Source: Phycisphaera mikurensis NBRC 102666 (GTDB taxonomy: Bacteria > Planctomycetota > Phycisphaerae > Phycisphaerales > SM1A02). Taken from it: a DNA stretch of 64,000 nucleotides. The notes beneath the pieces were generated by a model. It did not search any database and had not been told where the DNA came from. It saw nothing but the letters and a program-made list of their open reading frames with translations. The stretch's first letter is position 1. Every line of letters starts with the position of its first letter. A program made the position numbers and the translations under genes. The stretch lies in contig CAMDUB010000001.1 in the NCBI GenBank assembly GCA_945878575.1, positions 62,001-126,000 on the forward strand, read 5' to 3'. This document shows, one piece after another, positions 25,582 to 36,124 of this stretch.

Positions 25582-27084
25582 TCAGAGGCTCAGGCCGCCA
25601 GACCGCAACGAGCGACGAACGGGTCGCTTGGTGGGCTTTGCCATCTTTGCGGCCTTTGCAGGTTTTGATGCTTTGACTGACCGTGCTGGCTTGGAGGATC
25701 GCGCAACCTTCGCGAGCTTCGCCATGTTGGACGTGTGTGCAGCCTTGGCAACTTTGACCGCTCGTGCCGCGCGCGCTACTTTGGCAGCGTTGGCCTTCGC
25801 CGCCTTGGAGAGAGTTACCTGGGCACGTTTCACGGACTTGGTGGCAACCTTGGTGACAGCCTTGGTGGCGCTTGCCCTTTTCGTGATCTTGGATGCGGCC
25901 TTCGCGGACTTCGCCGAGATCTTCGCTGACTTCTTCGCCGACTTCTTCGCCGACTTCTTCGCAGATTTGCTCGCAGATTTCGAAGACCCAGTCGGCTTCG
26001 TTGACTTCGCTGTCTCTCCGCGCGCTGCCTTCACTCCGCGCTTCGCCCGCTTCGTTGCCTTGCGCTTCTTGGGGACAGCAGCATCCGAGTCATTGCCGCC
26101 CACTGCCGCGCCATCGAACGAGCCGTGTGGCAAGCCCCAGCCGATCAGCAACTGCTCGGCGATGCGTCGATAGTCGTCAGCGCCCGGGCATTTCGGGGCG
26201 TAATCAAAGATGGTTAGGCCGAACGATGGTGCCTCGGCAAGTTTGATGTTGCGGCGCACCGGCGGGTCGAGCACCGTAGCGGTGGACCATGGCACATCCA
26301 TGCCGCGGAATTGTGCAAGTTGCGATTCGATCTCACCAATCACTGCGCGCGCGTGACTTGATGAACCGTCATGCATACACAACAAAATGCCAGTGACGCG
26401 AATGGTTGGATTGAGCCCCTGCGAAATCAAATGCACGGTCTGCAGGAGTTTCTCAAGTCCACGCAATGGCAAGTAGTGCGCCTGCATCGGCACGAACACT
26501 TCGTCCGCAACGGTAAGCGCGTTGACGCTCAACACGCCCAAACTTGGTGGGCAGTCAAGAAGGACGACATCGTAATTTCCGTAGACCGGCTCGAGCTTTG
26601 AGCGCAGTACGGTTTGCATGCCTTCTTGCTGCGCCAGTTCGCCTTCCACCAGCGCCAGTTCGGTGACGGCCGGAATGAAATCAAGTCCAGGACGCGCGGT
26701 TTGCACTGCGTCTTCGATGCGACATGTTGGGTCAAGAAGGAGATCGCGAATCGTGCGCTGTTCCGGGCCACTTTCAACGCCAAAGTGCAGGGAAAGATTC
26801 GATTGCGGATCAAGATCAACCAGCAGAACACGCTGCCCGTAGCGCGCAAACGCAGCGCCAAGATTCACGGTACTGGTGGTCTTGCCCACCCCGCCCTTCT
26901 GATTGAGAAGTGCAATGACGCGCGGCTTGCGCGCGGGCTCGCTCGTCTCAACAGCGCTGCTCACCTCTGGTGTTCGCTCAGTGACATCAACAACGTCACT
27001 CGCTTCCGTTGCGAGCGCTGGATGCAATACTGGCTGCGGTTCGTGCGGTTCTTCGTGCATCGGAGCGCGAGTATAGATCGCCAC
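25582..27084 (-). CDS. ParA/Soj-family ATPase with ~165-aa histone-H1-like basic C-terminal tail
   Basis: LLNQKGGVGKTTSTVNLG deviant Walker A, DLDPQSNLS, LLDCPPSLG; tail KKRKATKRAKRG...SAKKSAKKSAKKSAK... Confidence 0.93.
   Translation of the reverse strand: MAIYTRAPMHEEPHEPQPVLHPALATEASDVVDVTERTPEVSSAVETSEPARKPRVIALLNQKGGVGKTTSTVNLGAAFARYGQRVLLVDLDPQSNLSLHFGVESGPEQRTIRDLLLDPTCRIEDAVQTARPGLDFIPAVTELALVEGELAQQEGMQTVLRSKLEPVYGNYDVVLLDCPPSLGVLSVNALTVADEVFVPMQAHYLPLRGLEKLLQTVHLISQGLNPTIRVTGILLCMHDGSSSHARAVIGEIESQLAQFRGMDVPWSTATVLDPPVRRNIKLAEAPSFGLTIFDYAPKCPGADDYRRIAEQLLIGWGLPHGSFDGAAVGGNDSDAAVPKKRKATKRAKRGVKAARGETAKSTKPTGSSKSASKSAKKSAKKSAKKSAKISAKSAKAASKITKRASATKAVTKVATKSVKRAQVTLSKAAKANAAKVARAARAVKVAKAAHTSNMAKLAKVARSSKPARSVKASKPAKAAKMAKPTKRPVRRSLRSGGLSL
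25928..25963. repeat. 12-bp tandem repeat x3 (gacttcttcgcc) encoding AKKS units
   Basis: Read directly: 25928-25939, 25940-25951, 25952-25963 (last base changed). Confidence 0.9.
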
Positions 27085-30848: not shown

Positions 30849-32204
30849 TTACGGCCAGATGCCGCGCAGGTCGTAAACGCGGGCGATCTGTTCGAGTGCT
30901 GCGCAGCTGGCTGCGGTGCGCAAGTCACATTCGTAGCGGTGCCGCGCCAGCTTCACGCGGCGTGAAGCGGCGATCATCGTTTCAGCCAACGTTTCGCGCA
31001 CCTGCGTTGCAGTCCATGAGATGGCAGAGCGATTCTGTAGCCACTCAAAGTAACTCACCGCTACACCGCCGCCGTTGCAAAGGATGCCCGGCAATACTTC
31101 AATGCCGCGCTGTAGGAAGATGCTGTCCGCGTCAGGCGTCACCGGCGCGCTGCCCATTTCGGCAACTGCGCGTGCGCCCACAATCTCTGCAACTTCGCTG
31201 GTGACCATCTGTTCGAGCGCAGCAGGGACGAGCACATCACATGGCAGCTTCCAGAAGTCAGCCGCGGAAACACACTCACCACCGTGGAAGCCGTCGAGCG
31301 AATCATGCACGTCAAGGTGGTCGATCAGGTCGTCCGGATCAAAGCCGCGGAGGTTCACCACCGCTCCACTGCGATCCAGTACGCCAACCAGACGTGCGCC
31401 TGAGCGACACAAGGCCAGCGCTGTCGAGCGACCCACATTGCCGAATCCAGCAATCGTGAAAGTCAGGGAACTTGGGTCAATACCCATATCGGGGAGCATT
31501 TCGCGCAATACTTCCACCAGGCCAAGCCCGCCGGCACTGGAGCGGCCAATGATGCCGCCCGCTTCCACTGGCTTACCAGTGGCAACGCGGTGCGCGTCGG
31601 CACGCGAATGCGTGGCACCGGTTTGCGCATAGGTATCTGCAAACCACGCCATCACCTGCGGATCAGTGCCTACGCCAGGTCCAACAACATCATGGTCTGG
31701 GCCAATCTGCTCAGAGATCGCCCACGCAAAGCGCCGGGTCACGCGTTCGAGTTCGTCACGCGTTAACTCGCGGTTACTGCACTCAACACCGCCGTACGCA
31801 CCGCCAAACGGTAGGCGCAACAGGCTGCACTTCAGCGTCATCAGAATGGCGAGCGCACGCATCGAATCAGCATCCACTCCGGGGTGGAAGCGCAAGCCGC
31901 CCTTGAATGGACCGAGCGCGGAATTGTGCTGCACGCGCCAGCCACGAAACAGCCGGTGTTGGCCGTCGTCCATCAGTACCGGAAAGTTCACTTGCACTTC
32001 GGAGCGCGGCTGCGAAAGGATCAGCTGATGATGATGCTTCAGCCCAATAATCTCAGCAGCGGCGAGCAACTGCTCTAGCGTCTGATGAAAGATGTTTGAC
32101 GGATCACGGTCGATCCCGAGATCTTCAAAGACCACGCGCTGGTTCTGCACCGTGGCAGGAGTGCGGTCCGTGGCTCGGCGTTTCTGATTGCGCTTCTCAG
32201 GCAT
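30849..32204 (-). CDS. Glu/Leu/Phe/Val dehydrogenase-family protein with substituted catalytic residues
   Basis: GPFKGGLRFHPGV, LKCSLLRLPFGGAYGGVE, FTIAGFGNVGRSTA; Lys to Tyr and Asp to Gly at the usual catalytic positions. Confidence 0.9.
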   Translation of the reverse strand: MPEKRNQKRRATDRTPATVQNQRVVFEDLGIDRDPSNIFHQTLEQLLAAAEIIGLKHHHQLILSQPRSEVQVNFPVLMDDGQHRLFRGWRVQHNSALGPFKGGLRFHPGVDADSMRALAILMTLKCSLLRLPFGGAYGGVECSNRELTRDELERVTRRFAWAISEQIGPDHDVVGPGVGTDPQVMAWFADTYAQTGATHSRADAHRVATGKPVEAGGIIGRSSAGGLGLVEVLREMLPDMGIDPSSLTFTIAGFGNVGRSTALALCRSGARLVGVLDRSGAVVNLRGFDPDDLIDHLDVHDSLDGFHGGECVSAADFWKLPCDVLVPAALEQMVTSEVAEIVGARAVAEMGSAPVTPDADSIFLQRGIEVLPGILCNGGGVAVSYFEWLQNRSAISWTATQVRETLAETMIAASRRVKLARHRYECDLRTAASCAALEQIARVYDLRGIWP

Positions 32205-32270
32205 GGCGAACTCGATTTCTCTGATGGTTGAAGCATGACGCGCACACGGCGCGCGCATTCATGCAAACAC

Positions 32271-33208
32271 TTAGCGAACGAATGTCACGCGACCCCAGAA
32301 CTGCGGAAGGTGCATATCAACGGCCCACTGCGGACTCCACACCCAATTGTCTTCCGGAAGCCCGGCGCGCTTGGCATACGGCTCGGCGCCGCCTGGCGCG
32401 GAACGCGCCGCTGCGCTGGGCGTGGCAAGACGCACACCAGCAGCGTCAAGCGCTTCGTGATTGTGGCGCCACTGCACGCGCGAGAAATTGATGCGCCACG
32501 TGTCGCCGGGTGCGGGCGCAGCACCATGGCGCGCGCGTTCGCCGAAGTCGCGCTGGCCCGCAGGCAATGCATCGATGCGCGCATCGCGCGGCGGCACGAA
32601 CGCCGACCACGGGATGGCGAGCTCCACGGTCCACGTGCGGTCCACGTCACGCGAATCGTCCGCGGTGCCCTGGACAAAGCAGCCCTTCGCCATGCCCGCC
32701 GCGTCCCATTCGTGGATCGCCGGCGCACCCTCGCGGTAGCTGCGGTGCAGGAACAGGTCGAACACCGTGCCCTGCGCGTTGATCTCGATCTCGTAGTACT
32801 CGCGCCCGTCGCCGTTGGGGTCGATGAACGCCTCGAAGTCGTTGTCGTGGAAGACGATCTCGTCGTGCTTCTTCAAGGTCGACCAGACGTGCGGCTCCGT
32901 GAGCTCCGCGCCGATGTAGAGGAACTTCTCGTCCCACAGCATCTTGGCGCGCGTGCGGTACGCGGGCACCGGCTTGCGCGCGCCCTCGATGTCGGCGAAG
33001 TCCTCGGTCCACGGCGCCGCGGCCCACGCGCCGGATTCGAGCAGGCCGGTCATGGTGGGATGCGCCATGGCGTACGGCGCGCGGTACGAGAGCGGCTCGG
33101 CCAGCGGCTTCGCCATCTCCGGCGGCTGCCACACCGCGCAGGACGCGCCAGCGATCAGCGCGATTGACGCGGTGACCGCAAGTGCGAGGTGCGCGGTGCG
33201 GGGCCGGT

Positions 33209-33212
<4 letters not shown>
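32271..33212 (-). CDS. CBM9-like carbohydrate-binding-fold protein (secreted/lipoprotein)
   Basis: [73 protein letters not shown]; lipobox-like LIAGASC. Confidence 0.82.

Positions 33213-36124
<2,912 letters not shown>

What the first reader, a model, noticed from the sequence alone, without database searches (positions are those of the whole stretch)
30849..32204. Glutamate-dehydrogenase homologue lacking both catalytic residues
The glycine-rich motif normally GG(A/G)KGG reads PFGGAYGG (codon TAC, + strand 31794-31796), replacing the catalytic lysine (Lys125 in Clostridium symbiosum numbering). The (P)APDVxT motif holding the catalytic aspartate (Asp165) reads VGPGVGTD (Gly codon at 31674-31676). 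The substrate-site Lys of FKGGLR and LKCS and the Rossmann motif GFGNVGRS remain. This suggests a dinucleotide-binding protein with changed or no deaminating activity, possibly regulatory or acting on another substrate.
Basis: partly seen in the sequence, partly recalled or inferred. Interest (0 to 1): 0.66.

Follow-up and report, generated by a model that had tools for sequence, protein, structure and literature searches.

The report
Dead-enzyme glutamate dehydrogenase in a planctomycete
A group of uncultured planctomycete bacteria has kept a glutamate dehydrogenase gene for a long time after its catalytic residues were lost, while still preserving the pocket that senses leucine in related enzymes, so the protein has probably become an amino-acid sensor or regulator rather than an enzyme.

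Summary
The protein at window 30849-32204 (-) is a full-length GDH-fold protein (451 aa). Tyr137 replaces the catalytic Lys and Gly177 the catalytic Asp, at exactly the codons named. This is not an error: all eight full-length orthologues from other genomes of the genus (76-100% identical) carry Tyr/Gly. In the wider family the Lys position is Tyr, Phe, Ala, Cys or Met. One genus keeps Lys but has lost Asp. Of 114 sites conserved in active relatives, the catalytic and substrate positions are mostly changed in the 32 Lys-less proteins of the main group. The five positions that bind allosteric leucine in Thermus and bovine GDH are kept. Pairwise dN/dS, where measurable, is about 0.01-0.05, and synteny shows vertical descent. 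The genome's other GDH is an intact large NAD-GDH; glutamate synthase was not found in 14 genomes of the genus. I conclude that it is a maintained pseudoenzyme, most likely a hexameric leucine/branched-chain amino-acid sensor or regulator. It resembles the inactive regulatory subunit GdhA of Thermus thermophilus but has no GdhB partner. Loss of GDH catalysis is near certain; the sensing role is inferred. New variant of a known kind.

The parts
30849..32204 (-). pseudo-GDH coding sequence, 451 aa plus stop (longer in-frame start at 32258 possible)
   Evidence: AlphaFold2 mean pLDDT 91.2, pTM 0.90; Foldseek best hits are GDHs, TM up to 0.97 by target length
31794..31796 (-). Tyr137 in place of the catalytic Lys (Lys125, C. 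symbiosum)
   Evidence: 0 of 32 proteins of the main Lys-less group have Lys
31674..31676 (-). Gly177 in place of the catalytic Asp (Asp165, C. symbiosum)
31680..31682 (-). Gly175 in place of the Ala of PAPD (Ala163, C. symbiosum)
31149..31151 (-). Ser352 in place of the Asn of the GAN motif near the coenzyme
31902..31904 (-). Lys101 of FKGG, substrate lysine retained here (Lys89 equivalent), lost in two related genera
31830..31832 (-). Lys125 of LKCS, substrate lysine retained here (Lys113 equivalent), lost in two related genera
31731..31733 (-). Arg158, equivalent of T. thermophilus Arg135 / bovine Arg207, binds leucine carboxylate
   Evidence: kept in the main-group Lys-less proteins; residue mapping
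31635..31637 (-). Asp190, equivalent of bovine Asp241 (T. thermophilus Asp166), binds leucine amino group
30852..30866 (-). C-terminal RGIWP (447-451), third wall of the leucine pocket, kept exactly at the end of the protein
31431..31448 (-). Rossmann glycine motif GFGNVG (253-258)
32271..33212 (-). upstream same-strand neighbour with CBM9-like domain; next to the gene in most of the group's genera sampled; no functional link shown

Best explanation
The gene encodes a catalytically dead, vertically inherited GDH that is kept by selection as a non-enzymatic protein. It most likely still forms the GDH hexamer and still binds leucine (or another branched-chain amino acid) in the inter-subunit allosteric pocket, and passes that state on as a sensor or regulatory subunit to a partner not yet identified. 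GDH chemistry is supplied by the genome's large NAD-GDH. SHOWN by sequence: loss of catalytic residues, clade-wide maintenance, low dN/dS in measurable pairs, retained leucine-pocket residues, presence of the large GDH. INFERRED: hexamer, leucine binding, regulatory output, partner.
For: Catalytic residues are replaced in every full-length genus member and across a 39-row clade with SH-aLRT 95, built with the catalytic columns left out. Pairwise dN/dS is about 0.014-0.052 in Lys-less pairs where it could be computed, against about 0.01-0.11 in active pairs. Of 114 sites conserved in active relatives, 50 stay conserved in the 32 main-group Lys-less proteins, among them Arg158, Asp190, Gly448 and Pro451; the changed ones include Lys101, Lys125, Lys137, Ala175, Asp177, Asn352 and Ser384. 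Arg447 is Arg in all Lys-less rows with a C-terminus, and position 450 stays aromatic. Leucine pocket 5/5 against catalytic/substrate positions 0/8: Fisher p 0.0008, sites chosen after the fact. Identity in the catalytic block 373-397 drops from 0.81 to 0.47, while the C-terminal helices stay at 0.59 to 0.57. The pocket is dispensable in active GDHs elsewhere (23 of 113 lack Arg158, 25 of 113 lack the C-terminal motif) but all 8 inactive ones in that set keep Arg158 and Asp190. Leucine binds there between three subunits in bovine and Thermus GDH, and Thermus GdhA is an inactive leucine-regulatory subunit (PMC9570180). Large GDH hit in 47 of 49 pseudo-GDH genomes against 11 of 19 with the active form (my tally; Fisher p 0.0003, no correction for kinship).
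Against: No ligand, oligomer or partner evidence. Arg158, Asp190 and the C-terminus could be kept for hexamer packing alone. All active Phycisphaerales relatives compared keep Arg158, Asp190 and the terminal Pro too, so retention is not a gain. The gene was not found in some nearly complete genomes of the same genera (G045, G070, G123, G126, 96-97% complete), so it is dispensable or missed there. Unlike Thermus, no catalytic GdhB-class paralogue is present in this genome.
Confidence: 0.5

Rival explanations
1. Dead structural partner without ligand sensing: the pseudo-GDH hexamer binds and modulates another protein, as B. subtilis GDHs do with glutamate synthase or S. aureus YwlG does with HPF, and the leucine-pocket residues are kept only for assembly.
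For: GDH-class proteins have documented protein-partner roles (PMC9522360; PDB 7mfm). Clade-specific near-invariant residues outside the active site (E27, Q194, R415, R392, A262) suggest a new interface.
Against: Glutamate synthase, the best-known partner, was not found in any of 14 genomes of the genus. No partner gene is linked; the only regular neighbour is a CBM9-domain protein.
Confidence: 0.27
2. Changed catalysis: the fold now processes another substrate with different residues.
For: Rossmann glycines, Lys101, Lys125 and Ser384 are retained in this genus, and Tyr137 is fixed within it.
Against: Position 137 is Tyr, Phe, Ala, Cys or Met in sister genera; the pocket varies further; Asp277, both substrate lysines and other pocket residues are lost in genera g17/g45. 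No set of new conserved polar pocket residues replaces them.
Confidence: 0.1
3. Neutral decay: the gene lost its role when the large NAD-GDH took over and is on its way out.
For: The gene was not found in a few nearly complete genomes; large GDH is present in nearly all pseudo-GDH genomes.
Against: Open frames without stops in all listed orthologues; dN/dS about 0.014-0.052 in Lys-less pairs; the clade spans many genera with proteins down to about 42% identity; C-terminus preserved to the last residue.
Confidence: 0.06
4. It is still an active GDH that uses other residues.
For: Overall fold and most of the substrate pocket remain in this genus.
Against: Lys125 and Asp165 of C. symbiosum GDH are the established acid-base pair (prior knowledge) and both are absent; nothing conserved takes their place across the clade.
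Confidence: 0.04

Closest known systems
Thermus thermophilus GdhA (PDB 3AOE), inactive regulatory subunit of heterohexameric GDH
   Same: GDH fold, catalytically inactive, keeps the leucine pocket (Arg, Asp, C-terminal Arg and Tyr-Pro end) (PMC9570180)
   Different: Thermus GdhA works with catalytic GdhB in one hexamer; here no GdhB-class paralogue is found in the genome. This protein scores better against GdhB (298.6 bits) than GdhA (239.1 bits), so the loss looks independent. GdhA's own letters at the catalytic positions could not be read with these tools.
Active GdhB-type GDH of Phycisphaerales relatives (e.g. L018, L014, L013)
   Same: Orthologous by tree; one compared at length (L103) shares neighbouring gene families with the window; 57-59% identical
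   Different: Relatives carry GGGKGG and PAPDVGTN
Polyangiaceae GDH pair (L241 active, L242 with Lys to Ala and Lys to Gln)
   Same: L242 is also an inactive-looking GDH with Arg158, Asp190 and an aromatic-Pro end kept
   Different: There the active form is in the same genome, as in Thermus; the C-terminus is RELFP rather than RGxFP
B. subtilis RocG/GudB and S. aureus YwlG
   Same: GDH-fold proteins with regulatory protein-protein roles (PMC9522360)
   Different: RocG and GudB remain catalytic; YwlG is only 11% identical to GudB homologues; glutamate synthase not found in this genus

Membership tests
Glutamate dehydrogenase family (PF02812 + PF00208), by descent and fold | Both ELFV dehydrogenase domains | tested here: met
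   PF02812 159.8 bits (cut-off 25.3), PF00208 193.4 bits (cut-off 23.4); AlphaFold2 model matches GDH structures
Glutamate dehydrogenase, enzyme (EC 1.4.1.2-4) | Catalytic Lys (GG-x-K-GG) and Asp (PAPD) | tested here: not met
   Tyr137 and Gly177, same in all full-length genus members
Glutamate dehydrogenase, enzyme (EC 1.4.1.2-4) | NCBIfam equivalog score | tested here: not met
   348.2 bits against a cut-off of 620 for the best model, GdhB_Halo; those models are clade-specific, so this is weak evidence
Glutamate dehydrogenase, enzyme (EC 1.4.1.2-4) | Glutamate oxidation activity | not testable with these tools
   needs assay
GdhA-type inactive regulatory subunit (Thermus) | Inactive GDH with leucine-site residues kept | tested here: met
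   Arg158, Asp190, RGIWP kept; site mapping
GdhA-type inactive regulatory subunit (Thermus) | Catalytic GdhB-class partner in the same genome | tested here: not met
   Only one GdhB-class copy; the other PF02812 hits are a Leu/Val-DH-like protein and a large NAD-GDH; the MAG is 86% complete, but genus members at 97% (G025, G058) also show one match
GdhA-type inactive regulatory subunit (Thermus) | Leucine binding and regulation of a catalytic activity | not testable with these tools
   needs biochemistry

The most novel reading that the evidence does not exclude
A stand-alone family of GDH-derived leucine (branched-chain amino acid) sensors: hexamers whose only retained ligand site is the allosteric one, with no catalytic partner of their own class, made by stripping an ordinary metabolic enzyme of its active site in one family of planctomycetes.
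Probability: 0.35. Interest if true: 0.75.

Novelty: new variant of a known kind. Interest (0 to 1): 0.57.

Why it matters
If true, it shows a metabolic enzyme turned into an amino-acid sensor within one bacterial family, with intermediates still alive: the genus g39 keeps the catalytic Lys but not the Asp, and other genera have lost different further parts of the site. That makes the order of enzyme-to-sensor steps directly testable. It also warns that 'glutamate dehydrogenase' annotations of this group in metagenome-based nitrogen budgets are wrong: the activity should be assigned to the large NAD-GDH, and in this genus glutamate synthase was not found.

Tried and rejected
Sequencing or assembly error: rejected, same residues in eight other full-length orthologues. 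Decaying pseudogene: rejected by open frames and low dN/dS; most dN/dS pairs in the window's own genus failed because dS was saturated, one pair gave 0.023. Glutamate synthase regulator (GudB-GltAB type): weakened, PF01645 not found in 14 genomes of the genus. A heteromer with a GdhB paralogue: none found in the genome. Number of Lys losses: not resolved, one origin for all is not rejected by the AU test (p 0.23-0.61). Reading the active-site letters of Thermus GdhA from 3AOE chain E: searches with several queries never placed it among the printed alignments (tables of 60, 61). The papers on Thermus GDH (PMC3199488, PMC6597394) are not held. No paper on an inactive GDH in planctomycetes was found.

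Full report
Observation. The reverse strand of 30849-32204 encodes an uninterrupted 451-aa protein with both ELFV dehydrogenase domains. It aligns over its length with solved GDHs. At the catalytic lysine it has Tyr137 (codon 31796-31794) and at the catalytic aspartate Gly177 (31676-31674). Two more active-site changes accompany them: the Ala of PAPD is Gly175 and the Asn of the GAN motif is Ser352.

Not an artefact. Eight full-length orthologues from other genomes of the genus, 76-100% identical, all show GGAYGG and GPGVGTD. One 98% match lies in a named record, a Lac Pavin Planctomycetota MAG; other relatives are titled Phycisphaerales or Phycisphaerae, so the window belongs in that order.

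A clade of inactive GDHs. In the same family (group code f1), genera g18, g42 and g2 have Ala, g17, g45 and g6 have Phe, g43 has Cys and g26 has Met in place of the catalytic Lys; g39 keeps Lys but has PGPGVGTD. Two further genera, g9 and g32, also lack Lys (Ser and Ala) and may be separate. Other families of the order and class that I read are canonical, GG-x-KGG or GG-x-KGA and PAPD. In a tree built without the catalytic columns, all these proteins except g9/g32 form one group of 39 rows with SH-aLRT 95. The number of Lys losses is not settled: one origin including g9/g32 is not rejected. Neighbouring gene families are shared between the window and both inactive and active orthologues (PPDK, chorismate-binding enzyme and others), so this is vertical descent at one locus and not a transferred oddity.

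Selection. In Lys-less pairs where dN/dS could be computed it is 0.014-0.052, comparable to or lower than in active pairs. In the window's own genus only one pair was informative (0.023); the rest were saturated at synonymous sites. Every listed orthologue has an open frame without internal stops. The gene was nevertheless not found in a few nearly complete genomes of these genera, so it is probably dispensable.

What is lost and what is kept. Of 114 sites conserved in all or all but one of 35 active rows, 50 stay conserved in the 32 Lys-less proteins of the main group. The changed ones include Lys101, Lys125, Lys137, Ala175, Asp177, Asn352 and Ser384, i.e. substrate binding, acid-base catalysis and coenzyme contact. 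In g17 and g45 both substrate lysines and the NAD-specificity Asp277 are gone too. Kept are Arg158, Asp190, Gly448 and Pro451; Arg447 is Arg in all Lys-less rows with a C-terminus and residue 450 stays aromatic. These are the residues that hold allosteric leucine between three subunits of the hexamer in Thermus and bovine GDH (PMC9570180; mapped through the alignment of T. thermophilus GdhB, where Arg135 is the second Arg of TRR, Asp167 by my count is the Asp of DTY, and R420/Y423/P424 are the C-terminal residues). The paper prints Asp166; I take the one-residue difference as chain numbering. Identity in block 373-397 (substrate loop) falls from 0.81 in active to 0.47 in Lys-less proteins, while the C-terminal helices hold at 0.59 and 0.57. 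As a control, the leucine pocket is not universal: among 113 active GDHs sampled, 23 lack Arg158 and 25 lack the C-terminal motif, while 8 of 8 inactive ones in that set keep Arg158 and Asp190 (the 8 include repeats of clade members and one protein seen in two loci). The caveat is that all active Phycisphaerales relatives compared keep Arg158 and Asp190 too, so this is retention, and packing could explain it.

Genome context. The genome (MAG, 2.79 Mb, 86% complete) has two other ELFV-type genes: a Leu/Val-DH-like protein with GGAK and AEDVG motifs (L002) and a large NAD-GDH with PEGGAK and LGPDEN motifs (L003; PF05088). My tally gives a large-GDH hit in 47 of 49 genomes with the inactive or Asp-less form and 11 of 19 with the active form (Fisher p 0.0003, uncorrected for kinship). 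Glutamate synthase (PF01645) was not found in any of 14 genomes of the genus at E 1e-10, with 13 of 14 control genomes ringing.

Structure. AlphaFold2 on 35 aligned sequences gives pLDDT 91.2, pTM 0.90. Foldseek's first hits are active GDHs; Thermus 3AOE and bovine leucine-bound 8AR7 are also among the matches. This shows that the fold is kept, not what it does.

Interpretation. Loss of GDH activity: about 0.93. The best reading of what remains is a hexameric amino-acid sensor or regulator, by analogy with the inactive leucine-regulatory subunit GdhA of Thermus, but without a GdhB-class partner in the genome. A Polyangiaceae MAG carries an active and an inactive GDH together (L241, L242), which is closer to the Thermus arrangement and shows that such losses recur. 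Rivals are a partner-binding scaffold without sensing, changed catalysis, neutral decay and residual activity; evidence for each is in the Rival explanations section. Novelty: a pseudoenzyme GDH is a known kind; a stand-alone, clade-wide, progressively stripped one is a new variant.

Noticed in passing
L242 (Polyangiaceae MAG, G285:C392) with L241 (G285:C565): Another inactive-looking GDH (Lys to Ala, Lys to Gln) in a myxobacterial MAG that also has an active GDH, a Thermus-like pair.
   Followed up: partly
genus of the window, 14 genomes: No glutamate synthase (PF01645) found; glutamate supply may rest on the large NAD-GDH alone.
   Followed up: partly
window 25582-27084 (-): ParA-like ATPase with a long Lys/Ala-rich, histone-H1-like C-terminal tail; the PPDK at 33209-36124 (-) has a similar shorter Lys-rich tail.
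   Followed up: no
window 32271-33212 (-): CBM9-domain protein directly upstream of the pseudo-GDH, conserved beside it in most of the group's genera sampled and not seen beside the two active orthologues compared at length (L103, L104).
   Followed up: partly
large NAD-GDH hits in G015, G052, G123, G095, G016, G131, G077, G060: Large NAD-GDH matches are reported with one or two in-frame stops in several related genomes; might be alignment edges or real breaks.
   Followed up: no
positions 27, 194, 392, 415 of the protein (window 30849-32204): E27, Q194, R392 and R415 are invariant in 32 Lys-less proteins but variable in active relatives; candidate new interface.
   Followed up: no
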